DNA of 64,000 nt from Candidatus Poribacteria bacterium (GTDB lineage: Bacteria; Poribacteria; WGA-4E; WGA-3G). The notes beneath the pieces were generated by a model, which worked only from the letters and a program-made list of their open reading frames with translations, was not told the DNA's origin and did no database searches. A program made the position numbers and the translations under genes. Positions 40,234 through 52,304 of the stretch are shown here, one piece after another. Where the stretch lies: the NCBI GenBank assembly GCA_022821965.1, contig JAJECN010000023.1, positions 62,001-126,000 on the forward strand, in the 5' to 3' direction. Each line of letters opens with the position of its first letter. Position 1 is the stretch's first letter.

Positions 40234-40330
40234 TTTTCAGTTATCAGTTAAAGAGGGTTGTCGTCAAACCTAAGGTCCTCTCCTAATTGAAAACAGATAA
40301 TTGGTAACCTCAATAGGGAAAAAGATAAAG

Positions 40331-40966
40331 ATGGAAACACTTAAATTGCTCATATTTGTTGGTACAGAAGGTATTTATCACGATCATGCAGGAAACGGAC
40401 AGTTCTTGACATCAATGCTCAACGATACCGGCGAAATTGCCTCTGATTTCTCGCAAGACTACAATGTGCTTGCTGATGGGCTTAGCGGATACGATACTGT
40501 CCTGTTCTATACGGATGTCGGGGAACTCTCGGAGGCACAAGAAATGGGACTGCTCAACTATATCCGAGCGGGTGGTGGATTTTTTGGACTGCACACCGCG
40601 GCTGCTTCATTTAGGGAATCTGAAGGCTACCACGGTATGCTCAACGGATTTTTCAACGGACATAGCCCGTATATGGACTTCACGGTTAATGTGAGTAACA
40701 GTGGGCATCCGATTACCGAAGGATTAGCCGATTTTGGGGTGACGGATGAACTCTACTACCTCAAACACAATCCTGACACATCACACCACCTGATGCATGC
40801 TTATGACGAGACAAAAGATGAAACGCATGTTATGGCGTTCCACCATACGTATGGCGAGGGTAGGGTCTTTTACTTCGCGCTCGGACACGATATGGCAGTG
40901 CTTGAAAATCCAAGTTTTCAGACGGTTATCCGCCGCGGTGCGTTGTGGGCAGGCAATCGGCTATAG
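40331..40966 (+). CDS. ThuA-like protein
   Basis: 211 residues from the ATG at 40331. Typical ThuA features: LLIFVGTEGIYHDHAGN at the N-terminus, the Gly-rich YIRAGGGFFGLHTAA loop, MDFTVNVSNSGHPITEG, and VMAFHHTYGEGRVFYFALGHD near the C-terminus. ThuA proteins have a class I glutamine-amidotransferase-like fold and are linked to trehalose or other disaccharide use, but the reaction is unclear. It follows the dehydrogenase by about 100 bases. Confidence 0.88.
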   Translation: METLKLLIFVGTEGIYHDHAGNGQFLTSMLNDTGEIASDFSQDYNVLADGLSGYDTVLFYTDVGELSEAQEMGLLNYIRAGGGFFGLHTAAASFRESEGYHGMLNGFFNGHSPYMDFTVNVSNSGHPITEGLADFGVTDELYYLKHNPDTSHHLMHAYDETKDETHVMAFHHTYGEGRVFYFALGHDMAVLENPSFQTVIRRGALWAGNRL

Positions 40967-41032: not shown

Positions 41033-41061
41033 TTGACTTTTTTTCTTAAATTTTTTACAAT
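41033..41061 (+). promoter_or_regulatory. Promoter of the TGT/PglZ/HerA operon
   Basis: TTGACT (41033-41038), exactly 17 bases (very T-rich), TACAAT (41056-41061). The predicted transcript starts near 41068, only about 3 bases before the first ATG, so the first gene may be read from a leaderless mRNA. Confidence 0.65.
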
Positions 41062-41070
41062 GATTATCAA

Positions 41071-41331
41071 ATGGATGAACCGATGCCAAATTCCCGATCC
41101 ATAACCCAACTTGCAGCTTATTGGAAACGAAATGGGCTCAGCACGCGCGCCAGTTATGTTCTTGCCAAAGCTGGTATATCGGAGACACAGTTGGTAGCGT
41201 ACCGTGAAATATCGGCACTCTTATGTTTGAAAAACTGCGGTTCCGAAACCGCCAAAGAAATCTGGGATTTTATGGCAAACTCAGAACGAGAAGTGAAAGA
41301 GGTGAAATTTGAAAAGCTCATCCCGAACTAA
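41071..41331 (+). CDS. Small RNA-polymerase alpha-CTD-like (helix-hairpin-helix) protein
   Basis: 86 residues. Residues 23-68 follow the alpha-subunit C-terminal domain pattern: LSTRASYVLAKAGI (helix 1 with Arg and the K-x-G-I turn), then the ALLCLKNCGSETAKEIWDFM block, equivalent to the LL-x-L-x-N-x-G-x-K/T-x2-E-I helix-hairpin-helix of alpha-CTD. It could bind DNA or RNA, or contact transcription proteins. No ribosome site lies upstream and the promoter ends 10 bases before the ATG; an alternative ATG at 41083 exists. It overlaps the next gene by 23 bases. Homology is by eye and moderate. Confidence 0.72.
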   Translation: MDEPMPNSRSITQLAAYWKRNGLSTRASYVLAKAGISETQLVAYREISALLCLKNCGSETAKEIWDFMANSEREVKEVKFEKLIPN

Positions 41332-42889
41332 GTTTGTACCTGTAACGCCAAACGAGATTCAACCTGTAACGATCCGCTATGCCCGTGAAACAGATGTAGC
41401 CGGTGCAAAGGATCTCGCGGACCGGCATCGGATGGAATTAGGCTTTGTTCGGGTATCCGTGCTACACGAAGCACAAAAAAAGAAATGGCTCCTCGTCGCC
41501 ATTCGGGATGAACAGGTCATCGGTTTCGCTAATTTCCGTATTCGTCAGGATAAAAACGCCACGCTTTATGATATTGTTATTGATGAGTCCTATCGTAAGC
41601 AGAAAATCGGGAAACGGCTTATACAACGCTTAACGTGGTTAGTGAACGTAGCTGGAGGCGAACATATTCGACTCAAGTGCCCCCAATCTCTTCCAGCAAA
41701 CGCGTTTTACGAGAAACTGCAATTTACACGGACAGATACCGAAATCGGGAAAAAGCGTCCGTTAAACGTATGGCACTACTTCCTCAAACCATTGCCCCGG
41801 CGGTTTGAATTCAATGAGAACGGTGATGGATTTTTACACAGTCCACCAGATCATTCCCCACATTTTTTCGCTTCAGCAACGATTGCCCCTGGAGAAATAC
41901 GAAAGATCTACGAACTCTGGCATGCGCATGCCCACGATTTTGAGTGGTCCCGAGGTAAACCGAATCCATTTCAACGGTTGTTAATTTCACCTGTACTTGC
42001 TAGCTCTTCAACACTCGCGTTTGTGCGTGAACTTAAGCGGAGCGGTGAAACGGAAGAAGTCATGTTCGATTCCGGTGGTTTCTTCGTCCAAAAGGGGGAT
42101 ATTACTTATAACGAACTCTATTCAAAATTACGTGAGGTTTACCAGACAGAAGATTGGGCGGATATCTACATTTTGCCAGACAATCCACCATTGAGTAGGG
42201 ATTCTATGTCTGACGCTGAAACTAAAATCCGACAGACAGTTGATGGAAGTGTTAGTTTTGCTTACCAATTGCCGTCTGATCTCCGTGGAAAGGTGATGCC
42301 AGTAATCCATGCCAAACAGCCTGCACACCTGGAGTTTTGTCTGCAAAACTATGAAGTTTTAATGGCGGACTCACACCGGATCGGTTTCGGGTCTTTTTCA
42401 ACCATGGGCACCACGAATTCAATTAACCGGGTCAATGTGGATGTGTTGCGTTTGCTTGATGATTTAGTCCCGCGACTCAATGGGAGTCGGCTTCATAGTT
42501 TTGGAATTTCAACGCCCCCCGCTGTTTTCTGTTTAGCAAAGGTGGGTGTAAAAACTTTTGATTCCAATGGTTGGATGCGGACGGGTGGTTATGGGTCTAT
42601 ATTTTTTCCGTTCATGTATGGTAGGCGGATTGATTGTAAAACTCGTAAATACTCTCGTATTCATAAGGATGAGTTTGAACCCCTAAAATTGAACATTGGA
42701 CATCGATGTCCATTTTGTGAGTCCTTTGATAAACTAGCAGAGGAAAGTGGGCGGTGGTTTCGGATTATGCATAACCTAATAGTCATGGCAGAATTAGGGA
42801 CTTACAACTACCAACCACAATGGAATATCCTCGAAGAGTACTCCGAACATTATTACCGAATGCTTAAAGATGTGCAAATATCAACATAA
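41309..42889 (+). CDS. GNAT acetyltransferase - tRNA-guanine transglycosylase-like (DpdA-like) fusion
   Basis: 526 residues. Residues 20-160 are a GNAT domain (TIRYARETDV; acetyl-CoA loop RKQKIGKRL at 96-104; ANAFYEKLQF at the end). From about 222 the protein follows the TGT fold: SPVLAS, MFDSGGFF (Asp254, equivalent to the base-binding Asp), LPDNPP (Asp291), GSFSTMG, then HSFGISTPP and VKTFDSNGW (Asp418, position of the nucleophile). A zinc site H465-x-C467-x2-C470 ... H488 (HNL) replaces the usual C-x-C-x2-C ... H. The archaeal-style FDS motif and operon partners suggest DNA or RNA base exchange like DpdA. TTG start with GAGGTG upstream, overlapping the previous gene. Substrate unproven. 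Confidence 0.8.
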   Translation: MKSSSRTKFVPVTPNEIQPVTIRYARETDVAGAKDLADRHRMELGFVRVSVLHEAQKKKWLLVAIRDEQVIGFANFRIRQDKNATLYDIVIDESYRKQKIGKRLIQRLTWLVNVAGGEHIRLKCPQSLPANAFYEKLQFTRTDTEIGKKRPLNVWHYFLKPLPRRFEFNENGDGFLHSPPDHSPHFFASATIAPGEIRKIYELWHAHAHDFEWSRGKPNPFQRLLISPVLASSSTLAFVRELKRSGETEEVMFDSGGFFVQKGDITYNELYSKLREVYQTEDWADIYILPDNPPLSRDSMSDAETKIRQTVDGSVSFAYQLPSDLRGKVMPVIHAKQPAHLEFCLQNYEVLMADSHRIGFGSFSTMGTTNSINRVNVDVLRLLDDLVPRLNGSRLHSFGISTPPAVFCLAKVGVKTFDSNGWMRTGGYGSIFFPFMYGRRIDCKTRKYSRIHKDEFEPLKLNIGHRCPFCESFDKLAEESGRWFRIMHNLIVMAELGTYNYQPQWNILEEYSEHYYRMLKDVQIST

Positions 42890-42905
42890 CGTTAAAGGAA
42901 ACAAT

Positions 42906-43730
42906 ATGTCCCGAATACATATTCTCAAAGGATTTTCTGATGTCGATAGTGCCTTATGGGTTTTGAAGTATCATCCGGGTCCCCGAAGTCGTTCGGATTT
43001 GGTGCAAATAGTTCGTGACAAAGGTTATATGGTAGCAAATGAAGATTATGAAATCATTCTGTTATTAATTAAATGGGGAATTGCCCGACGCACTCCATCG
43101 GAATTAACTCACAAAGGTAAAGAGTTTTATGCCTTGTGGGAAAGGAATCGAGATGTGGCTATTGACATACTACACGGGTTGCAATACGGTTTGTGGACAA
43201 AACACTTGCGGACTCAAAATACAGAGTCTTGGTCTTATCGAGAGGTTTGTAATTATCTTTGGGATTCTGATGCCTTACCCAAAAAGGATGACGTTATCAG
43301 TCATATCTATAATAGCCTCTCATATCTGGAAATAGATCCAGAAAAGGCGGCGTTTGACGGTAAATCTGTGAATCATGCCTACGATTGGCTTTTACCACTT
43401 TCTCCACTAATGCTTGAGGGAGTCAGAGAAACAGCAAACGGCAGAAATTTCAGGAATGCCACTTTTAAACGGCGCTCTCACTGTTCTACAGCGTTGTTTC
43501 TAATGGGATTGGATTGGGTTGCTAGGGAATCTGGAAACACCTATGGAGATTTATGGATGATTGGAGAGGAACAGAGACGGCAAGTTTGCCGATTCTGTTT
43601 AATTGACGAGACGCGGTTTGACTTCATGTTCAACGAAACGCTTCGCCGCTTTTCTGCTTACTTATCTGTTCGCAGATCTGGTGGTCTTTATATTGTTATT
43701 AATAATGAACCACAAATCTCTGATTTTTAG
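42906..43730 (+). CDS. Uncharacterised winged-helix-like protein of the TGT/PglZ operon
   Basis: 274 residues from the ATG at 42906, which has AAAGGAA upstream. Residues 13-80 look like a winged helix: ALWVLKYHPGPRSRSDLVQIV, then an IILLLIKWGIARRT recognition-like helix and LTHKGKEFYALWE. The rest is mostly helical with a C-R-F-C pair near residue 219. I do not recognise a named family; a protein of this size and plan accompanies DpdA in Dpd clusters, but I cannot confirm homology. It starts 16 bases after the TGT-like gene and ends 17 before the large ATPase. Confidence 0.75.
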   Translation: MSRIHILKGFSDVDSALWVLKYHPGPRSRSDLVQIVRDKGYMVANEDYEIILLLIKWGIARRTPSELTHKGKEFYALWERNRDVAIDILHGLQYGLWTKHLRTQNTESWSYREVCNYLWDSDALPKKDDVISHIYNSLSYLEIDPEKAAFDGKSVNHAYDWLLPLSPLMLEGVRETANGRNFRNATFKRRSHCSTALFLMGLDWVARESGNTYGDLWMIGEEQRRQVCRFCLIDETRFDFMFNETLRRFSAYLSVRRSGGLYIVINNEPQISDF

Positions 43731-43747
43731 TTTACGGAGTTATTTTT

Positions 43748-46700
43748 ATGTCATTACACGAAATTTATAAAAAAGAACCTACTGTAGCTACGCCCTCGGT
43801 TTATAATTTAGTATCTGCACCAGAAATGTGGGATCGTAAATTTCACTTTCATGTCAGCACTCATATATCTATTGGGAATTTACGGAACCGGTGGGACGCT
43901 ATCATTAACAATCTCCTGAAAAAACGTTCTGTAACCGGTTTGATCTACGCAGATAAAGGTTACGGTAAAACTTCTACCGGTATTTCTTTATGGCAAGCAG
44001 CGGAGGCGAAACAGATTGTCACAGTCCCCCCATTTGTCTGGGGGAGTCTTGCTGATATGCTTACGGCGACGCATGCATGGATCTGCTATCGTTTGCAAGA
44101 TACACGACCTGAACTTATCCATGATATCGAGCAAAAACATCGAGAGATAGTTGAAGTTGATGAAGAAACGTTGGCACAAAGGTTAGTCCAAGAGAATAGC
44201 TTATCTTATGATCAGGCTCGCAACACGATTAATCACTTGAGAGAAGCAGGTCGACTTTTAGAGGTTTTGTCTCCACACCAACTTTTGGACTACCTCCGTT
44301 TTACAACGCAAATACTTCTAAGATCAGGTTACAACGGTCTCTTAATGCTGCCCGATGAGTTTGAACTTTTTAAGACGAATCCTGACATATCACAGAATTA
44401 TCAGAATCTCAAAGACTTTATCTTCGGACTTTATGAAGAAGAAAACTTCCCAATTGGATGTGTTGCCTTCACCTACAATCGCACATTTGCTGATATTGAG
44501 CTCAGAGCAAGTCATATATTAGATCGGTTTAATAAGCCCGAGGGGAGTCAGATTAACTTAGAGCAACTTTACGGGCAAACAGATTTTGCAAAGTATTTGT
44601 GGGAGAAATTGTCCGGAACACTTCAACTGTCGCCTTCAGAACGTAATGCTGTAGATACGGATGTTTTAGAGGCACTCGGGCAATTTTTACGCCATCCGCG
44701 ATCACGTGAACTTATGAGTGGTCCCCGTTCAGTTGTGAGGACATTTAATCGTGCAGCACAACGTTATATTGAAAGTAATAGACCCTATTCTATTTTTGAT
44801 TTTTGTGATGATTATCTTTCTGGAAATATCAGTTACGGATCACAAGAAAGTGAAACAGCATCAGCCTATAACCAGATAATAGGATTACCAATTGTTCGTA
44901 ATACAACTGATGGTGATAAAATTGTTAAGTTACTCTGTGTACATCCAGAGGGGATACCACCGGAGTGCTTCCAGAAGTACGGTATTCCTGAGCAGGCTAA
45001 AGATGTCGTTATCCAAGATCTCCTTGGGGATCATGTTAATATAAAAGTCACAGGACCGGCTCTAAAAATATATCGAGACGATTTGTTGGGCGTAGATGAA
45101 CTTAATGAAATTCTTAAAATGCTAAGAGGGACGTTTAGTCCAGCAGATAAAGAGTTCCACCGCGCTGCTGTGCGTGCTTTTAGCAGGCATATCCTCTCTG
45201 AAATTTTGACGAAAAAGACAGGAGCTAGCCTTGGATGGGTTATTACCGAAACAGATGGAAATTTTGGATTTCATTGCAGATTGGATGCAAAAGGCACAGT
45301 TTTGTCAGATTATCCTGATAGAACATTAACCATTGATGTTGCCACAGAAATTCTCTCGAATTTCCCAACATCCGACAGCCAGTTTCGGACACAATTTACT
45401 TTGGACACCACTAACCAGGTAGACAACGCTTGTTGTATTACAGCAAAGAGTCTTGATTTTCGTTTTAATGTACAGCAACCCATTGACGCTCAACGAGTAC
45501 CAGAAGACATCGGTAAACTAGGAGAATTGTTCCTTCCTGAATTCATAACACCACTGCTTTTACTTTCTATCTTGGATTTTTTTGATGATGATTCAATAGT
45601 TTCTATGGTGGAATCTGCAAAACAGGAAGCCGAAGTTGGGTTTCTTAAAGAGCGAATTCGTAATGAACTGATCCATTATTTTTTTTCACCTGAAATTAAG
45701 ACAGAGGTTTACTTTGATCCAGTTGAACTTTCTACGGATTTTCAATCGGTGACTGCCGGAAAAGACTTCGTTGAAAATGTTTTACGAATTTTAATACCAA
45801 AGCAATTTCCTGACTATTCTGCGGTTGCCACGGCAGCGCAATGGAAAAGATATTTGGATGCATATAAGCTCGCACTCAGCAACATTCCTACGCTTGCAAT
45901 TAGACGCGGAATTGAGCCCATGGCAATGGCTAATTCCGATGTTCCAGGACATTTTGGATTGAGCGGCATCTCCGCTTTTCGGAATTTCAATAACGTTGTT
46001 GGACGCGAGTTGTTGAGATTTGAGGACAGTACTGGGCGGCAAGTCGAAGTTACAAGCAAACAAGAACAAGTAAATGTTTTGTTTACGCTTCATCGATTTG
46101 AAAAGCGACTCGTAGAACAACTTGAGACCAATTCCACAACTATTATTGTTGATGGGCAGGTTGTTAATGCAATAACGCTTCCTTTCGTCCATGAGTATGC
46201 TGCTAAGCTTGGTTATGCCAAGGACGAAATTAATGAGTTAGTAGATATTCTTAATACCCGCGGTATAATCAAGACCAAAAGCGAAATTGGTATGGAGCAT
46301 CTCTATATCGCCGATGTCTCTATCAATTTTTCCGAATTGGAAGCAAAATTGAGTAATATTGAGGACGTGATTAAATTAGCAGAATCTAAGGGGTTTGACT
46401 ATCAATATGACGTTCTCACCTCTGTCCGTAATCTCATCCAGACTGGGGGCATTGAAAATGATGAGGTACAAAAAGAGGAGTTGCGTCAAAAATTGAATTC
46501 GACAGAGAGGAACTTTGAGCAGTATTGCCGCAATATGATTATCACCGAGCAGAATTGTCTTGAACAACAGATTACCGAACTTGAGACACTTCGCCTTCCG
46601 GTTCCTAAAGTTTTAGGGCAGCAAACTGATTATCCTCCAGTAGATTTCAGCCAAATCCTTTTTGATGATATCCAAAACCATGTGAAACGTGCTTATGTAA

Positions 46701-47710
46701 GCCTTTCTGATGAAATTACGAAAATTCAGTCGAAAGTGCGAGATATGGTTGATCGTGAAGTTGAAACTTATGAATCAGATCAGACACTATTCAAAGCAAT
46801 TGAGACAGCTGATCGATTGAAATCGGAACGAATTAAAGTTGGCACGCAAATTAAAAATCTGAGTAAGAGACAGAATGATACCGAAGAATTATTCCAACTT
46901 TTCGATCCGTGGAGACAGCTAGCGCGACAGTGCCATAACGATAAACGCTCAATGGAAAACAGTCGCGAAGATATGGAAGTCGGCAATCTAATTGATAGGT
47001 TAAATGGTGTTGTGGGCGAGATAAGACAACACCTTTCTGAAAAACGCCAAAGCCTTAAAGATATTTTAAGCAACAGTGAACACTTCAAGTTAAAGATTGA
47101 TAGCATTAATTCCGAATTTGGTACATATGAAAAAGGTAAAGAAAATGAATTTATCAAATATCAAGATAACCTTGAGAATCTTTTGCGGAAACTCTTTGAG
47201 AAACCACATATTGGCGTAAGTTGGAATCCTGCTGATCAAGATGGATGTTACAGGGACACTCGGCAAAAGGTTGTTGAAAAGTTGTTAAAGGAAGTTATAG
47301 GCGAAGCGAGACGGCAAATTGATAGCCTCAACCGTGATTTGCGGCAGCCAATTGATATTCTTGCTGTCCCTGATGAATTAAAAGATAAATCAGTCGCTTT
47401 ACGTCAAGATCTACAGACGTGTGACAAAAAATTCTTGGCAGTCCGCTCGGAACTGACTATTGAGCAAGTTGACACTGAATTAGAAAATTGGGTGTCTACA
47501 TTGATTTCCCTACGCGAAGCCGGTAGAACATACTTGAAGAGATGGGAGAAAATTAACGAGGATATGCAAAGGTTTAGAAGTGCTCTAAGCCAAACAGCAC
47601 AAAGGTTACATGATGCTGTAAACCCACTGATAGAGGATGGCACTTTCCCTTCAGCACGCGCAATTGTTGAATGCTTAGAGGAATTGTATGAATTGCGGTC
47701 AAACGTTTGA
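43748..47710 (+). CDS. 1320-residue P-loop ATPase with C-terminal coiled coil (BrxC/PglY/DpdH-like in plan)
   Basis: Residues 68-75 are a Walker A motif (ADKGYGKT); LLMLPDEFELF has the Walker B Asp203-Glu204; ASHILDRF at 254-261 may hold an arginine finger. Residues about 280-900 contain mixed helical and beta segments with winged-helix-like parts. Residues about 900-1300 are strongly charged heptad-rich helix, giving a coiled coil of SMC-like appearance. Size and N-terminal ATPase with a very long helical tail fit the large ATPases of BREX and Dpd systems, but I cannot establish which family. GGAG lies 8 bases before the ATG. It is clearly AT-rich. Probable motor or sensor of the system. Confidence 0.8.
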   Translation: MSLHEIYKKEPTVATPSVYNLVSAPEMWDRKFHFHVSTHISIGNLRNRWDAIINNLLKKRSVTGLIYADKGYGKTSTGISLWQAAEAKQIVTVPPFVWGSLADMLTATHAWICYRLQDTRPELIHDIEQKHREIVEVDEETLAQRLVQENSLSYDQARNTINHLREAGRLLEVLSPHQLLDYLRFTTQILLRSGYNGLLMLPDEFELFKTNPDISQNYQNLKDFIFGLYEEENFPIGCVAFTYNRTFADIELRASHILDRFNKPEGSQINLEQLYGQTDFAKYLWEKLSGTLQLSPSERNAVDTDVLEALGQFLRHPRSRELMSGPRSVVRTFNRAAQRYIESNRPYSIFDFCDDYLSGNISYGSQESETASAYNQIIGLPIVRNTTDGDKIVKLLCVHPEGIPPECFQKYGIPEQAKDVVIQDLLGDHVNIKVTGPALKIYRDDLLGVDELNEILKMLRGTFSPADKEFHRAAVRAFSRHILSEILTKKTGASLGWVITETDGNFGFHCRLDAKGTVLSDYPDRTLTIDVATEILSNFPTSDSQFRTQFTLDTTNQVDNACCITAKSLDFRFNVQQPIDAQRVPEDIGKLGELFLPEFITPLLLLSILDFFDDDSIVSMVESAKQEAEVGFLKERIRNELIHYFFSPEIKTEVYFDPVELSTDFQSVTAGKDFVENVLRILIPKQFPDYSAVATAAQWKRYLDAYKLALSNIPTLAIRRGIEPMAMANSDVPGHFGLSGISAFRNFNNVVGRELLRFEDSTGRQVEVTSKQEQVNVLFTLHRFEKRLVEQLETNSTTIIVDGQVVNAITLPFVHEYAAKLGYAKDEINELVDILNTRGIIKTKSEIGMEHLYIADVSINFSELEAKLSNIEDVIKLAESKGFDYQYDVLTSVRNLIQTGGIENDEVQKEELRQKLNSTERNFEQYCRNMIITEQNCLEQQITELETLRLPVPKVLGQQTDYPPVDFSQILFDDIQNHVKRAYVSLSDEITKIQSKVRDMVDREVETYESDQTLFKAIETADRLKSERIKVGTQIKNLSKRQNDTEELFQLFDPWRQLARQCHNDKRSMENSREDMEVGNLIDRLNGVVGEIRQHLSEKRQSLKDILSNSEHFKLKIDSINSEFGTYEKGKENEFIKYQDNLENLLRKLFEKPHIGVSWNPADQDGCYRDTRQKVVEKLLKEVIGEARRQIDSLNRDLRQPIDILAVPDELKDKSVALRQDLQTCDKKFLAVRSELTIEQVDTELENWVSTLISLREAGRTYLKRWEKINEDMQRFRSALSQTAQRLHDAVNPLIEDGTFPSARAIVECLEELYELRSNV

Positions 47711-47721
47711 CAACCTATTAA

Positions 47722-48270
47722 ATGAATTGGTTAACCTATCATAAACAACTCTTAAAATTAGCGGAAACGATGGAAACGCTAATGCCTTCTCAAATTTCCG
47801 CGCGAAATGTGCTTCTACTTGCTATTCAAACATGGGAACCATACATCAATCTGTACGGACCACCCGGTGTTGGGAAGACTTTTATTGTCCACTGTTTGCA
47901 TCATTGCACTGACCTCCTCTATTTTTCGGATCCGACTCGTTACAACGCCTCTGTTTCCAAAGAGTGTGCTGTGGCAATTGACAATGCACCGCACACCCGC
48001 CAAGAAGCACGCCGACTTTATGATAGGATCCGATGGGGACAAAAGGATTATACCGGTCCAAAGAATGTTATCTTAATCACGCGCCAACCTATTGATGATG
48101 ATATACGGAAGATTGAACTAACATTGACAGACATTGACATTGCCCATATAGAAAACATCATGCGCCAACAATTCGGTAAATCTGATTTTGAGGACTTCAG
48201 TGAGTATGCTCAGCAACGTTCAGGCTTGTGGTGGTACATCAAAAACCTTTGTTGTAGCATAGAATGTTAG
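47722..48270 (+). CDS. Small AAA-type ATPase, 3' end inside a dispersed repeat
   Basis: 182 residues. Walker A GPPGVGKT (46-53), Walker B AVAIDN (Asp87), and a sensor-like VILITRQP (about 115-122). It lacks the usual lid domain. The last six codons and the TAG stop lie inside a 25-bp sequence (48252-48276) that recurs with one difference at 63695-63719, so the natural C-terminus may have been replaced by a repeat insertion. It starts 11 bases after the large ATPase with no clear ribosome site, suggesting coupled translation. It may be a clamp-loader-like partner of the large ATPase (inference). Confidence 0.78.
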   Translation: MNWLTYHKQLLKLAETMETLMPSQISARNVLLLAIQTWEPYINLYGPPGVGKTFIVHCLHHCTDLLYFSDPTRYNASVSKECAVAIDNAPHTRQEARRLYDRIRWGQKDYTGPKNVILITRQPIDDDIRKIELTLTDIDIAHIENIMRQQFGKSDFEDFSEYAQQRSGLWWYIKNLCCSIEC

Positions 48271-48276
48271 TCTGTG
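48252..48276. repeat. Dispersed 25-bp repeat copy at the end of the small ATPase gene
   Basis: TTGTAGCATAGAATGTTAGTCTGTG differs from 63695-63719 at one base only and from 63665-63689 at a few. The other copies form TAGxx(C/T)xAGxCTxxTAG-type hairpins; here the changed base weakens the stem. It supplies the stop codon of the ATPase gene. Confidence 0.8.
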
Positions 48277-48370
48277 TGCTTATGCGTCCGCAAATGAACA
48301 GTTTACAGCGAAAAAAACGCATATCGCCGTGATTCTCATGGAAATATAGGAAGTTGCTTGGGAGGTTATC

Positions 48371-48553
48371 ATGTTAGTGAAAAGACTTTTTGAAAAACTC
48401 GAGCACCGGAGACTCGAAAAAGCTCGTTTAGAGGGGGTATCTGAAGGCTTATCCGAAGCACAGAAAAAACATGCAGAATGGGTGGAATGGGCTAAAAACG
48501 GTCAGGATAAGCCGCAACCCAAACCCCCAAAAGCTCCAGAGACGGATAGTTAG
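48371..48553 (+). CDS. 60-residue charged helical protein
   Basis: Strong GGGAGGTTATC ribosome site before the ATG supports expression. The first about 45 residues are a charged amphipathic helix (KRLFEKLEHRRLEKARLEG ... EAQKKHAEWVEWA) and the tail is Pro/Lys-rich (QPKPPKAPETDS). No family recognised. It lies within the operon, between the small ATPase and PglZ genes, and could be an adaptor; it may instead be unrelated. Confidence 0.65.
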   Translation: MLVKRLFEKLEHRRLEKARLEGVSEGLSEAQKKHAEWVEWAKNGQDKPQPKPPKAPETDS

Positions 48554-48595
48554 GTAGACACACTCTCTGGGCCCGAGCACAAAGGACAGAATGAA

Positions 48596-49690
48596 ATGGC
48601 ACAGCAATTGTGCACAATCCCCTGCATAACTGAAATCCCGGAAAACTATCGTGCCTTGTGGGAACTTTGCCTTACCGATGTGTGGTGTCCAGCATCGCTT
48701 GAGGAGTGGCGAGAGCGAATTGACTCACCTCGCCAAATTGATGCAGATTCAACACTTTTTGTGAATTTATCTCCTTCAGACCGAGAAGAATTAACACAGG
48801 TTTTCGGTTTTCCGACAGTTGAATTTCCAGCACTTCCTTCAATGGAACAGGTCAATGAGGCATTGCCAAACCGTTTTGGGACAATTCATCTATTCAAACA
48901 GTCTGATGTCGCTGCAGAAATTACAAAACGGATTCATCAGGAATTGCCACAGATCGTCGTTCTATTGGTTTTCGATGGCTTATCCTTTTATGATGTCGTA
49001 GATTGGAAACTACCCCAAGCTACACTGGAACCGTGTCTTGTAGATGGATTAAGTGTCACGAATAGTGCTATGCAACGACTCATCGGTTCACCTGTTTTAA
49101 CACATAGACTTTTTGGGATGGGATATATCCGGCGATTGGGTTTTTCATATTGGGAACGCGCAGCAAATGTATTAACCGACGCGCTTTTTGCTGAGTTTCC
49201 ACCGAACCAACTGCATCGCATGACAACCTTTGATGAAGTTTTAAAGACAGTAAAGGCATCCAGATGGTCAACACATACCTACATTCAGATTATCCGTTCT
49301 GGACTTGATGGGGTTTGCCATGCTAACAGAGAACGCCCAAATATTAAGTCGATTCTTAACGATCTAAAACGAGATATTTTATCGCTTCTTGAGGTCTTAC
49401 AAGCAACTGAGAAATCATTTCGTCTCTTCATTACTGCCGACCATGGGATCCTTTGGTACGCTGACCAAGACATCATTCCGTTGGCACAAGAGAAATTCAA
49501 GGCACGGTATACTCACGGATCTATCGCACGAGGGGATAACCAGCTAACGCTGAATACCGATGAGGGCACCTACACCGTTTTAACTGGCGACAAAGTTATC
49601 GCGAAACAGCGTAAAGTGACAGAGTGGGGTTTTCACGGTGGAGTCTCAGCACAAGAATCATTAGTCCCATTTTGGGATGTCCGTCAATAA
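48596..49690 (+). CDS. pglZ: PglZ-domain protein (alkaline phosphatase superfamily)
   Basis: 364 residues, shorter than BREX PglZ proteins, made up mostly of the catalytic domain. Metal and active-site residues: Asp127 (LLVFDGLSFYD), Thr155 in LSVTNSAM as probable nucleophile, Asp238 and His242 (GLDGVCHA), Asp282-His283 (ITADHG), and His347 in the hallmark HGGVSAQESLVPF. All expected metal ligands are present, so catalysis is likely. PglZ is the signature protein of BREX and Pgl phage-defence systems, though its substrate is not established. It lies 17 bases before the HerA-type ATPase. Confidence 0.88.
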   Translation: MAQQLCTIPCITEIPENYRALWELCLTDVWCPASLEEWRERIDSPRQIDADSTLFVNLSPSDREELTQVFGFPTVEFPALPSMEQVNEALPNRFGTIHLFKQSDVAAEITKRIHQELPQIVVLLVFDGLSFYDVVDWKLPQATLEPCLVDGLSVTNSAMQRLIGSPVLTHRLFGMGYIRRLGFSYWERAANVLTDALFAEFPPNQLHRMTTFDEVLKTVKASRWSTHTYIQIIRSGLDGVCHANRERPNIKSILNDLKRDILSLLEVLQATEKSFRLFITADHGILWYADQDIIPLAQEKFKARYTHGSIARGDNQLTLNTDEGTYTVLTGDKVIAKQRKVTEWGFHGGVSAQESLVPFWDVRQ

Positions 49691-49707
49691 AGTGAGAATA
49701 ATTTATA

Positions 49708-50916
49708 ATGGCTGAAGTGAATCTACGAGTCGGGACTGACTACGAAACTGAAGATATAGCGTATATCCGAGCAACTGGTTCTCGTGCCGTGTTTATCTGT
49801 GGGAAGCGAGGTTCCGGAAAAAGCTACACACTCGGCGTGATTGTTGAAGAATTGTTCGCGCAGGAACGCGGAAAAGCCGTTCTAATTATCGCCGATCCGA
49901 TGGGTATTTATCACACGATGGTTTCGGCGAACGAAAGCCAATCGGATGAAGTTCGACAGGCGGGATTGCTAACTGAAGGGTTTCCTGTCCACTTGGTTGT
50001 TCCGGGGGATCCGCTTGCCTGTTTCGGAGATGCACAAATCCTTAACAGATTGCAAATGAATGGCGTTGAGGTAACATCATTGTGGGTTAATGCTCATGAT
50101 TTGTCAGCGGATGCTTGGTGTGAACTTTTTGATCTGGAAATCAACAACGCTATGGGAATAGCGTTGTGGCGGGCGGTGGATACCCTTCAGGAAACCCGCG
50201 AACATTTTAATATTTCGGATATATTGAAGGCACTCCGTAAAGATACGCGCGCTAAAAGCACCACAGTAGAAGCACTCGAAAATCGTTTGACAGCTGCGCA
50301 AAGGTGGGGATTTTTCTCTGAAGAACCAACCCACTTAACGGATGTATTTTCCTTGGAACATATTAACGTTTTGGATTTAAGTGTTATTGATGCAGGCACT
50401 AAAGGATTGCGGAATTTAGTGTTGGATATTGTTGCACGACGGTTGTTTACAGAACGGACGCGGATGCGCCGACGCGAAGAATTTGGAATGGAAACAAGTC
50501 TTCCCCGAGTTTGGATGGCAATTGACGAAGCACATCAGTTTATACCGCAGGGCAAGGGGTCCTTATGTAAAGAGATGTTAATCCGTTGGGTTAAAGAGGG
50601 ACGCCAGCCCGGACTGAGTCTTGTCGTCGCGACGCAACAACCCTCCGCAATTGATTCTGAATTGCTTTCGCAGTGCGACTTGATTATGGCACATAAAATT
50701 ACGACATGGGATGACATCAACGCCCTTGATCGACTAAGTGCAACGTATATGGAAGGCGATTTAAAGGGATATATCCGGCAACTTAACCGGCGTGGCGAGG
50801 CACTTCTGGTTGATGACGAGACCGAATCTGTTAACACAATCCGTGTCCGTCCGAGACGTAGTGCGCACGGCGGGGCTGAAATTCAGGAGCAAACAGCGAG
50901 TCGCTCCTTTTTCTAA
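49708..50916 (+). CDS. HerA/FtsK-type hexameric ATPase
   Basis: 402 residues. Walker A GKRGSGKS (32-39), Walker B WMAIDEAHQFIP (Asp273-Glu274), sensor TQQPSAIDSEL, and the DUF87/HerA C-terminal pattern LIMAHKITTWDDINAL. HerA-type rings translocate double-stranded DNA and in many defence systems pair with a nuclease or other effector; no NurA or nuclease gene follows here. Last gene of the operon. An inverted repeat lies 25 bases downstream. Confidence 0.88.
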   Translation: MAEVNLRVGTDYETEDIAYIRATGSRAVFICGKRGSGKSYTLGVIVEELFAQERGKAVLIIADPMGIYHTMVSANESQSDEVRQAGLLTEGFPVHLVVPGDPLACFGDAQILNRLQMNGVEVTSLWVNAHDLSADAWCELFDLEINNAMGIALWRAVDTLQETREHFNISDILKALRKDTRAKSTTVEALENRLTAAQRWGFFSEEPTHLTDVFSLEHINVLDLSVIDAGTKGLRNLVLDIVARRLFTERTRMRRREEFGMETSLPRVWMAIDEAHQFIPQGKGSLCKEMLIRWVKEGRQPGLSLVVATQQPSAIDSELLSQCDLIMAHKITTWDDINALDRLSATYMEGDLKGYIRQLNRRGEALLVDDETESVNTIRVRPRRSAHGGAEIQEQTASRSFF

Positions 50917-50975: not shown

Positions 50976-52304
50976 CTATACCATTTCACGGGCAGGGTAG
51001 TGCTTATCCCCTGGTGACACATCTGTTGGATCGTTTGACACAGCCGTTTCCGGTGGGACCATAATTTGGTTCTCGCTCATCGGATCGTCTGTTTCAGCAC
51101 GCCATTGTTCCAGACGGTCTCGCATCTCTGTCAAGACGTTCGTATAATCTGGGTTTCCTGCGAGATTATGTGCCTCTGACGAATCAAACACGACATCGTA
51201 CAACCTTTCCGATTCAACAGGATCGTCCCCCCAACCGTGTTCCATCATAAAAGTTTTGCTGATGCTGTCGTCGCAATTCGGCAGTGCCCACTTCTCAGCG
51301 TCGTCATAGCGTCTAATGTATTTCCAACGCTTGGTTCGGACAGCGCGTTGCGGTTCATAACAGCAGTGGTAGTTAACTTCAGCGAAGATAGCGTCGCGAG
51401 TATCTTCCGCCTCACCCCGCACTAACGGGAGAACGGAATTACCCTGGAGCCACGCGGGTGCTTCAATCTCTGCCAATTCACAGATCGTTGGGAAGAGATC
51501 GATCTGACTGACCAACCCGTCCACAACTTGTCCTCCATCAAAACCGCCGGGACCCCGAACAATCAACATTATACCGATGCCGTGGTCACTGAGGTGGCAT
51601 TTCATGCGTGGGAATGCAAGCCCGTGGTCGGTCGTGCATATCACAAGCGTATTCTCAGCAAGCCCATTTTCCTCCAATGCGTCAAAGACGACTCCCATTT
51701 TCCTATCGAGTGTCCGTGCTGCGTCTATGTATTCCGCCATATCTTGCCGTGTTACGGGTGTGTCAGGGAATGGTGCCGGTGGTTTTACGTAGCGCGGATC
51801 TGTTTTCGGTTCGCCATCCGGTGGCGGATCGAATCCTTTCGCTCGGCGATGCGTTTCACCGAACCCAACATCCAAAAAGAAGGGAGCATCGTGTTTCTCC
51901 TTGATGAAGGCACGGGCGCGTTCTTCTGCGCCTGCTCGTACACTTCCTTCAGATAAAAGTCTCTGGTATCCTGTTTCTTTGAGGTCTCGGACAACGTGCT
52001 GGAATCCTGCCAAGGCGGTGATGTAGCCTGCTTGGTTTAAGGTGTACGTTATGAGGTGCTCTGGTACTGGAAGACTCCACCCCCGATTTGTCAATCCACC
52101 CATACCGCAGCTGTGTGCCCATTGTCCGGTGAGCAGTGCGGCGCGGGATGGTGAACAGGTTGGATTTGCACAAAAGGCGTTCCGAAATACCACGCCTTCC
52201 TCCGCAAGTTTCTGAATATTTGGTGTTGGGATTGCATGCCCGTAAGGCTGCACATATCGTCCCGTATCGTGTGAGTGAATATAGACTATGTTTGGTTTAC
52301 TCAT
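50976..52304 (-). CDS. Sulfatase (N-sulfoglucosamine sulfohydrolase-like)
   Basis: 442 residues. Formylglycine site Cys50 in CSPSR-AALLTG. The block TTDHGLAFPRMKCHLSDHGI matches the sulfamidase-like branch also seen in the tandem pair at 27855-31157. No signal peptide (MSKPNIVYIHSHD). It converges on the PglZ/HerA operon and appears unrelated to it. Confidence 0.92.
   Translation of the reverse strand: MSKPNIVYIHSHDTGRYVQPYGHAIPTPNIQKLAEEGVVFRNAFCANPTCSPSRAALLTGQWAHSCGMGGLTNRGWSLPVPEHLITYTLNQAGYITALAGFQHVVRDLKETGYQRLLSEGSVRAGAEERARAFIKEKHDAPFFLDVGFGETHRRAKGFDPPPDGEPKTDPRYVKPPAPFPDTPVTRQDMAEYIDAARTLDRKMGVVFDALEENGLAENTLVICTTDHGLAFPRMKCHLSDHGIGIMLIVRGPGGFDGGQVVDGLVSQIDLFPTICELAEIEAPAWLQGNSVLPLVRGEAEDTRDAIFAEVNYHCCYEPQRAVRTKRWKYIRRYDDAEKWALPNCDDSISKTFMMEHGWGDDPVESERLYDVVFDSSEAHNLAGNPDYTNVLTEMRDRLEQWRAETDDPMSENQIMVPPETAVSNDPTDVSPGDKHYPAREMV

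What the first reader, a model, noticed from the sequence alone, without database searches (positions are those of the whole stretch)
41071..50916. Candidate undescribed system: GNAT-TGT fusion with PglZ, HerA, large coiled-coil ATPase and alpha-CTD-like protein
Eight genes run on one strand behind a single strong promoter with gaps of -23 to about 100 bases. Established knowledge: PglZ plus a large P-loop ATPase defines BREX/Pgl defence, and TGT-fold DpdA enzymes insert 7-deazaguanines into DNA in Dpd clusters. Here both appear together, with a HerA ATPase and small alpha-CTD-like protein, but no PglX methyltransferase, BrxL/Lon, nuclease or restriction gene is visible. I infer a modification or sensing system in which base exchange takes the place of methylation. 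It also looks AT-richer than its flanks (two sampled 60-base lines about 40% and 32% G+C inside, 57% and 53% outside), consistent with transfer.
Basis: partly seen in the sequence, partly recalled or inferred. Interest (0 to 1): 0.92.

Follow-up and report, generated by a model that had tools for sequence, protein, structure and literature searches.

The report
DNA base-exchange BREX-like phage defence
This stretch of an uncultured Poribacteria genome carries a compact gene set, first described in print in January 2026, that probably swaps a base in the cell's own DNA as a self-mark and destroys unmarked DNA; the new part is that its marking genes also turn up joined to a quite different defence system.

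Summary
The cluster is real: seven intact genes plus one truncated remnant at 41071-50916, in a Candidatus Poribacteria genome. Gene B is a GNAT fused to a TGT (fold match Z 25.9, catalytic residues kept), C has the SspB/DUF4007 fold (Z 14.0), D and E are P-loop ATPases, G is a compact PglZ with likely metal ligands kept, H is HerA. This is not an undescribed system: it matches the BREX-Related Capture (BRC) system of Rakesh & Krishnan (PMC12839542, January 2026), which also proposed TGT-based marking. New here: (1) gene A, alpha-CTD-like, is the N-terminal part of a 689-858-residue alpha-CTD/sigma-4(/HARE-HTH) protein in two distant BRC loci, a component absent from the published list of seven; (2) six carriers share one chromosomal site, yet the block from the end of B through C, D and E has been swapped while A and G-H stay similar; (3) the triad GNAT-TGT + C + D occurs in eight further loci beside Druantia genes (DruE and DruF in 8 of 8) instead of PglZ/HerA. 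I infer that B-C-D is a portable base-exchange modification module, with PglZ-HerA as the restriction side. DNA modification and anti-phage activity are untested.

The parts
41033..41061 (+). promoter TTGACT-17-TACAAT; its end lies 9 bases before gene A's ATG
   Evidence: 10 of 12 consensus matches; same motif upstream of A in L021, L023, L025 and, with changes, L024
41071..41331 (+). gene A, 86 aa, alpha-CTD-like protein; short form of an alpha-CTD/sigma-4(/HARE-HTH) protein seen in distant BRC loci
   Evidence: PF03118 E=0.0017; matches residues 16-87 of the L053 689-aa protein (E=2.9e-13) and 9-92 of the L054 858-aa protein (E=1.3e-4) in a two-sequence search (E=1e-11 and 0.006); their domains
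41309..42889 (+). gene B, 526 aa (TTG start), GNAT (about 20-157) fused to TGT (about 180-512); D254, D291, D418, C467, C470, H488 conserved
   Evidence: PF00583 1.7e-12; fold match to TGTs, Z 23.9-25.9 in the 50 rows shown; residues invariant in 14 aligned sequences; alignment to the genome's own tRNA TGT
42870..43730 (+). gene C, 286 aa, SspB/DUF4007-like (BrxA-like) winged-helix protein, likely DNA target recognition
   Evidence: AlphaFold model pLDDT 89; SspB 6juf/6lb9 Z 14.0/13.9 over 250 residues, next row 8.8
43748..47710 (+). gene D, 1320 aa, P-loop ATPase; BrxC-like role inferred
   Evidence: Walker A GYGKT and Walker B LPDE region conserved; BrxC_BrxD PF10923 E=0.0045, below cut-off; profile match to the Druantia-associated ATPase 100%, E=8e-61
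47722..48270 (+). gene E, 182 aa, small P-loop NTPase (position of the STAND NTPase/BrxB-like component of BRC)
   Evidence: GxxGxGKT P-loop and IDN motif conserved in 6 of 6 aligned members; AAA hits, best E=0.0023
48371..48553 (+). remnant F, 60 aa, C-terminal piece of a resident gene; probably not part of the system
   Evidence: about 500 bases missing relative to L024 and L021; full-length F without the cluster in L123, L125, L126
48596..49690 (+). gene G, 364 aa, compact PglZ, likely nuclease
   Evidence: BREX_PglZ_2 E=3.1e-4; PADLOC PglZ E=0.0016, 6.1e-7 for the L054 homologue; ligand-like residues invariant
49708..50916 (+). gene H, 402 aa, HerA/FtsK-type DNA translocase
   Evidence: PF01935 5.9e-12; PADLOC HerA 8.7e-24 and mad8 9.6e-23
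42600..48150 (+). swapped block: end of B (Cys/His end of TGT), C, D, E; approximate borders
   Evidence: identity to L023/L024/L025 falls from 79-92% to 46-69% and returns to 82-96%; per-segment matrices and trees
40301..40966 (+). flank: ThuA-like gene (name by eye), left edge of the insertion site
   Evidence: next to the sulfatase in 19 of 20 fetched genomes without the cluster
50976..52304 (-). flank: sulfatase-like gene (name by eye), right edge of the insertion site

Best explanation
This is a BREX-Related Capture (BRC) system, an anti-invader modification-restriction locus. Gene D, an ATPase, and gene C, an SspB-like winged-helix protein, form the scanning and target-recognition unit (inferred). 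They hand the target to gene B, whose TGT domain exchanges a guanine in DNA for a 7-deazaguanine made from the cell's preQ0/preQ1 supply, perhaps acylated by its GNAT domain; this marks self-DNA (inferred). DNA without the mark is pulled in by the HerA translocase H and cut by the PglZ nuclease G, with the small NTPase E coupling recognition to the effector (inferred from BRC and BREX). Gene A, an alpha-CTD-like DNA-binding protein, is the shortened form of a larger protein that probably reads DNA or its modification (inferred). Shown here: gene content, folds or motifs, catalytic residues, conservation, one shared insertion site in six carriers, block exchange of B(end)-C-D-E, and the separate life of B-C-D beside Druantia genes.
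For: Each of the seven BRC components listed in PMC12839542 section 36 has a counterpart here, D and E by size, position and motifs rather than by family profile. B, C, D, E, G and H occur together in 8 loci: window, L021-L025, L053 (Latescibacteria) and L054 (Promineifilum). TGT residues D254/D291/D418/C467/C470/H488 line up with the genome's own tRNA TGT. The TGT part is nearest to DpdA-type enzymes (L033 E=1.3e-58, L034 E=3.5e-19; the genome's tRNA TGT, in the same search set, gave no hit). QueC E=1.4e-76 and QueF E=2e-30 in the genome; QueC in 15 of 17 further genomes or records carrying GNAT-TGT; intact QueD beside GNAT-TGT in L052. C has the SspB fold. The block swap gives C and D the pattern expected of recognition parts.
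Against: I saw no DNA modification or phage assay for it. PF19557 (DUF6079) gave no match in the window's genome, and D compared with BrxC-type or SspC-type profiles reached only 41% and 23% probability, over the ATPase part. C compared with SspB/DUF4007 by sequence profile gave nothing (0.1%); only the fold supports it. The window's B had no PADLOC hit to DpdA. QueC occurs in 12 of 14 control genomes, so its presence is weak evidence; the Promineifilum host G196 showed no QueC (a 2.2-Mb MAG). A TGT-fold enzyme can also act on RNA. The block swap cannot tell marking specificity from invader sensing. Some relatives carry in-frame stops (A in L021; D in L022).
Confidence: 0.6

Rival explanations
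1. The GNAT-TGT is not a self-marking enzyme but part of the attack or alarm: it inserts or recognises deazaguanine in invading DNA, and PglZ-HerA acts on the altered DNA.
For: GNAT and TGT appear only in a subset of BRC loci (PMC12839542), so the restriction side can work without them. A DpdA-type relative lies on a contig that looks phage-like by eye (L033), so invaders may carry such bases.
Against: The GNAT-TGT + C + D triad stays together beside an unrelated set of Druantia genes, as expected of a self-contained modification module. In the published Ssp model the SspB-type protein works with the modification side (PMC10853773 passages).
Confidence: 0.2
2. The TGT acts on RNA (tRNA or phage RNA) and the GNAT on tRNA, aminoacyl or protein targets, so the locus is an RNA-modifying or RNA-sensing defence.
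For: The TGTs in the structure lists that match the model are tRNA enzymes; the best NCBIfam hit of the GNAT is RimI (9.2e-10, below its cut-off).
Against: By sequence profile the TGT part hits DpdA-type enzymes and misses the genome's tRNA TGT; its partners are a winged-helix fold like SspB, HerA and PglZ.
Confidence: 0.12
3. A decaying island: the genes were acquired once and are being lost, with no present function.
For: Remnant F; in-frame stops in A of L021 and D of L022; a PglZ fragment at the site in L125.
Against: In the window A-E, G and H are open and the catalytic motifs are kept; the block has moved between genera at 83-92% identity.
Confidence: 0.05

Closest known systems
BREX-Related Capture (BRC) system, Rakesh & Krishnan 2026 (PMC12839542; section 36 read in full, other passages by term search)
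   Same: PglZ, large BrxC-type ATPase, small NTPase, DUF4007/BrxA-type winged-helix protein, HerA/FtsK, GNAT and TGT in one locus; proposed GNAT/TGT self-mark
   Different: Here an alpha-CTD-like gene precedes the GNAT-TGT; it is not in the paper's list of seven. In the passages my term search showed (12 of 15 places) an RNAP alpha-CTD-like domain is mentioned for PglW only. Figure 10B and the supplement were not visible to me.
Dpd (7-deazapurine in DNA) system
   Same: DpdA-like TGT as base-exchange enzyme
   Different: No PADLOC Dpd hit of any kind in the cluster's eight proteins; effector is PglZ-HerA
BREX types 1-6
   Same: PglZ, BrxC-like ATPase, BrxA-like and BrxB-like proteins
   Different: No methyltransferase in the Pfam scan and no BrxL in the Pfam or PADLOC scans of the eight proteins (two weak methyltransferase hits, PADLOC E=1e-4 and NCBIfam E=0.036, fall on the 86-aa alpha-CTD-like gene A); TGT instead
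Ssp / BREX type 4 phosphorothioation modules
   Same: modification enzyme + SspB-fold protein + ATPase (C matches SspB by fold)
   Different: TGT in place of the PAPS reductase SspD; ATPase only remotely similar. The genome also holds a DUF4007 gene followed by a 1162-aa ATPase and an SspD-like gene (L146; the last two named by eye)
Druantia (DruE/DruF/DruL, PADLOC types II and IV)
   Same: in eight other loci the B-C-D triad lies beside DruE and DruF (8 of 8) and DruL (7 of 8)
   Different: no match to window genes A, E, G or H in those stretches

Membership tests
BRC | TGT | tested here: met
   Z 25.9 to 1iq8 over 296 residues; catalytic residues
BRC | GNAT (sometimes fused to TGT) | tested here: met
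   PF00583 1.7e-12, fused
BRC | HerA/FtsK translocase (in all BRC loci) | tested here: met
   PF01935 5.9e-12; PADLOC HerA 8.7e-24
BRC | PglZ | tested here: met
   weak profiles, ligand-like residues invariant
BRC | PglZ with N-terminal inactive Swi2/Snf2 region | not tested
BRC | DUF4007/BrxA-type winged-helix protein | tested here: met
   SspB fold Z 14.0; no sequence-profile support
BRC | DUF6079/BrxC-type ATPase | tested here: inconclusive
   PF10923 E=0.0045; no PF19557 match in the genome; 41% to a profile of three BrxC-type proteins
BRC | small STAND NTPase (active BrxB homologue) | tested here: inconclusive
   P-loop NTPase of 182 aa with conserved motifs; STAND subfamily not established
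BRC | anti-invader activity | not testable with these tools
   not shown in the section read
BREX | PglX/BrxX methyltransferase or other classical modification gene, and BrxL | tested here: not met
   no methyltransferase in the Pfam scan and no BrxL in the Pfam or PADLOC scans of the eight proteins; weak methyltransferase hits (PADLOC E=1e-4, NCBIfam E=0.036) are on the 86-aa alpha-CTD-like gene A
Dpd | DpdA plus DpdB, DpdC and the dpdD-K set | tested here: not met
   only the TGT is present

The most novel reading that the evidence does not exclude
GNAT-TGT + SspB-fold protein + ATPase is a portable DNA base-exchange modification module, the 7-deazaguanine counterpart of Ssp, that has been plugged into two unrelated restriction machines: PglZ-HerA (BRC, this window) and Druantia (DruE/DruF/DruL). 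In BRC the recognition half of the module is traded between lineages as a cassette like a specificity subunit, and an alpha-CTD/sigma-4/HARE-HTH protein (gene A in short form) reads the mark.
Probability: 0.45. Interest if true: 0.82.

Novelty: new member of a known kind. Interest (0 to 1): 0.55.

Why it matters
If right, DNA base exchange is a third exchangeable self-mark, beside methylation and phosphorothioation, shared by BREX-like and Druantia-like restriction machines. That makes a clear test possible: one module, two restrictors, one predicted DNA base. It would also give a handle on how a TGT reaches a base in double-stranded DNA, and on what a fused acetyltransferase does to the inserted base.

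Tried and rejected
Rejected: 'undescribed system'. Rejected: gene F as a component. Rejected as support: QueC alone, since it is common (12 of 14 controls). The 650-720-aa GNAT-first proteins picked up by the GNAT half of B (seen in full in L038-L040) are another family, not GNAT-TGT. L034 is a Dpd-like helicase/PLD locus, not BRC. C versus DUF4007 by sequence profile gave nothing; the rows below SspB for C are mostly ordinary winged-helix proteins. One search's G_H matrix was wrong (the joined genes were out of frame) and its TGT comparison used the wrong ORF; both were redone and the versions discarded. PDB sequence search with the PglZ alignment gave only E 0.058 or worse. The PDB search with the B alignment listed GNATs only in the 60 of 124 rows shown. 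Viral-contig scan: one Druantia-type hit, L073. Print searches for the Druantia link: 'Druantia'+'transglycosylase' 0 papers, 'Druantia'+'TGT' 0, 'Druantia'+'deazaguanine' 8 listed, of which I read passages of one, PMC12458937, and none of the other seven; so absence from print is not proven. For gene A, a search for two of 'HARE-HTH', 'sigma', 'alpha C-terminal domain' held 73 papers; the ten listed were not relevant and the rest were not seen.
Full report
Observation. Seven are intact. The sixth (48371-48553) is a leftover of a 137-144-aa protein: about 500 bases present in L024 and L021 are missing here, and the full-length gene sits at the same site in three genomes without the cluster. 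G+C is 42.8% in the cluster and 48.1% in the rest of the window. The host is a Candidatus Poribacteria relative (record titles of loci with B 93-94% identical).

Domains. A: alpha-CTD-like, PF03118 E=0.0017, below cut-off. B: GNAT E=1.7e-12 plus a TGT that Pfam barely sees (E=0.036), but whose AlphaFold model (pLDDT 81.9) matches archaeosine TGT 1iq8 at Z 25.9, 3.0 A, 296 residues. D254, D291, D418, C467, C470 and H488 are invariant in 14 aligned relatives and line up with the DSGG, second Asp, FD, Cys and His positions of the genome's own tRNA TGT (the roles of these residues are recalled). The TGT part scores E=1.3e-58 and 3.5e-19 against DpdA-type proteins (L033, L034), and the genome's tRNA TGT, present in the same search set, gave no hit. 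C: model pLDDT 89, SspB 6juf/6lb9 at Z 14.0/13.9 over 250 residues against 8.8 for the next row; Foldseek E=7.7e-3, prob 1.00. By sequence profile C has no DUF4007 match. D: P-loop ATPase with Walker A/B regions conserved, PF10923 E=0.0045, below cut-off; against BrxC-type and SspC-type profiles only 41% and 23%, over the ATPase part. E: small P-loop NTPase. G: compact PglZ; residues that fit the metal and nucleophile positions of the NPP/PglZ superfamily (recalled) are invariant in 5 of 5. H: HerA.

What it is. A paper search found PMC12839542. Its section 36, read in full, describes the BREX-Related Capture system: PglZ, DUF6079 ATPase, STAND NTPase, DUF4007 protein, HerA/FtsK, GNAT (occasionally fused to TGT) and TGT, in 45 taxa, and proposes that GNAT/TGT mark self-DNA. 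I file the window as a member; the DUF6079 and STAND labels could not be confirmed by my profile tests. The term 'BREX-Related Capture' occurs in one held paper.

Distribution. D of the window matches 14 of 84 genomes of the phylum: 8 at 46% identity or more, the window's included (BRC), one partial damaged BRC copy (G071, 38%; L118), one D on a 3.6-kb contig (G082, 24%), and 4 of the Druantia type (20-22%). B, C, D, E, G and H are all present in 8 loci that I could read: window, L021, L022, L023, L024, L025, L053 of Latescibacteria and L054 of Promineifilum. In L022 D has one in-frame stop. In L054 TGT and GNAT are separate genes, and C, E and A match weakly. L026, L027, L028 and L118 are cut by contig ends.

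A further component. A lies directly upstream of B in all 9 BRC loci whose contig reaches that far: seven in Poribacteria (window, L021, L022, L023, L024, L025, L027; the L021 copy has an in-frame stop) and, as the N-terminal part of a 689- or 858-aa protein, in L053 (residues 16-87, E=2.9e-13) and L054 (residues 9-92, E=1.3e-4). The long proteins hold alpha-CTD domains (3.9e-37, 4.4e-18), sigma-70 region 4 (5e-11, 1.3e-14) and, in L054, HARE-HTH (8.1e-8), and match PglW of BREX type 2 in PADLOC (1.3e-11, 9.7e-15). The BRC section lists no such protein; in the passages my term search showed, an RNAP alpha-CTD-like domain is named for PglW only (12 of 15 places shown). I infer a DNA-binding, perhaps mark-reading, role.

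One site, swapped block. Six carriers (window, L021-L025) have the cluster beside the sulfatase, and beside the ThuA-like gene wherever the contig reaches it (5 of 6; L022 ends at A). Of 30 genomes of the genus with the ThuA-like gene and no BRC I fetched 20; in 19 of the 20 the ThuA-like and sulfatase genes are neighbours, 5 of them with a whole or partial F between and one (L125) with a 54-residue PglZ piece, the trace of a lost copy; in L127 the sulfatase was not found in the stretch. Nucleotide identity of the window to L023/L024/L025 is 79-92% from base 41201 to 42700, falls to 46-69% from 42701 to 48100, and is 82-96% from 48101 to 50800. By segment, window against L023: B residues 107-400 91%, B 430-end 67%, C 63%, D 60%, E 73%, G 92%, H 89%; window against L026 from another genus: 85%, 91%, 83%, 92% for the first four. 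A foreign genus shares the block while congeneric genomes do not: that is recombination, not uneven rate alone. The D tree puts L026 with the window type and L023-L025 apart with support 1.0. The block holds the Cys/His end of the TGT, the SspB-like protein, the ATPase and the small NTPase: the parts expected to read DNA.

The module elsewhere. GNAT-TGT + C-like + D-like genes (C profile 98%, D profile 100%, E=8e-61) occur in eight more loci: L029, L030, L031, L032 (Poribacteria), L050 (proteobacterium MAG), L052 (Acidobacteria MAG), L055 (Isosphaera MAG) and L073 (IMG/VR contig). A DruE-type helicase lies in the same gene cluster in 8 of 8: the L050 protein itself (1527 bits to PADLOC DruE4) and seven others 45-54% identical to it (in L055 one 525-aa ORF separates DruL and DruE). 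DruF is present in 8 of 8 and DruL in 7 of 8, not seen in L052. A search with window genes A, E, G and H found nothing in the 16 stretches read of these loci at E 1e-3. L052 also has an intact QueD (PTPS 2e-37) right upstream of the GNAT-TGT, with pieces that look like QueC and QueE ends before it (by eye) and an intact QueC about 9 kb upstream. This ties the GNAT-TGT to preQ0 chemistry in that genome. I found no print record of the combination (seven of the eight papers unread).

Mechanism. In Ssp, a modification enzyme, the SspB winged-helix protein and a ring ATPase act together, with SspB as recognition part (PMC10853773 and PMC12707154, passages only). By analogy B is the modifying enzyme, C and D the scanning and recognition unit, G and H the restriction side. 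This differs from the published guess that the STAND NTPase stands in for DpdB: no E was found in the Druantia-type loci although B, C and D stay together. preQ0 and preQ1 should be available (QueC, QueF); preQ1 carries an amine that a GNAT could acylate (chemistry recalled; speculative). Steps not shown: any base exchange, its target, PglZ cutting, defence.

Verdict. Real, already described in silico, untested. The additions here, a further component, cassette exchange, and the triad's double life, are what deserve a second look.

Noticed in passing
L029+L114, L030+L115, L031+L116, L032+L117, L050, L052+L148, L055+L155, L073+L149+L156: GNAT-TGT + SspB-like + ATPase operons joined to Druantia genes (DruE and DruF in 8 of 8), in four bacterial groups by record title and on one contig held in IMG/VR; L052, L055 and L073 add a 657-671-aa helicase with NERD/UvrD-type PADLOC hits (45-51% identical among them).
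   Followed up: partly
L052:9100-9954: Pieces resembling the ends of QueC and QueE (by eye), then an intact QueD, directly upstream of a GNAT-TGT gene.
   Followed up: partly
L033:9267-10415: DpdA-type TGT on a contig that looks phage-like by eye, the nearest relative of the BRC TGT domain among the non-GNAT proteins compared.
   Followed up: no
L034:611-11565: Dpd-like locus with PLD nuclease, DruE/DpdJ-type helicase and DpdA in another genome of the phylum.
   Followed up: partly
L146:3353-8801 (the window's own genome, other contig): A DUF4007 gene followed by a 1162-aa protein and an SspD-like gene (the last two named by eye), likely a phosphorothioation set; DUF4007 matches at E<=0.001 in 49 of 193 searched genomes.
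   Followed up: no
L023:11585-13918: Transposase-like ORFs (by eye) inserted between genes E and F of the BRC cluster.
   Followed up: no
L038, L039, L040: A Poribacteria family of about 670-aa proteins beginning with a GNAT domain, of unknown function, picked up by the GNAT half of gene B.
   Followed up: no
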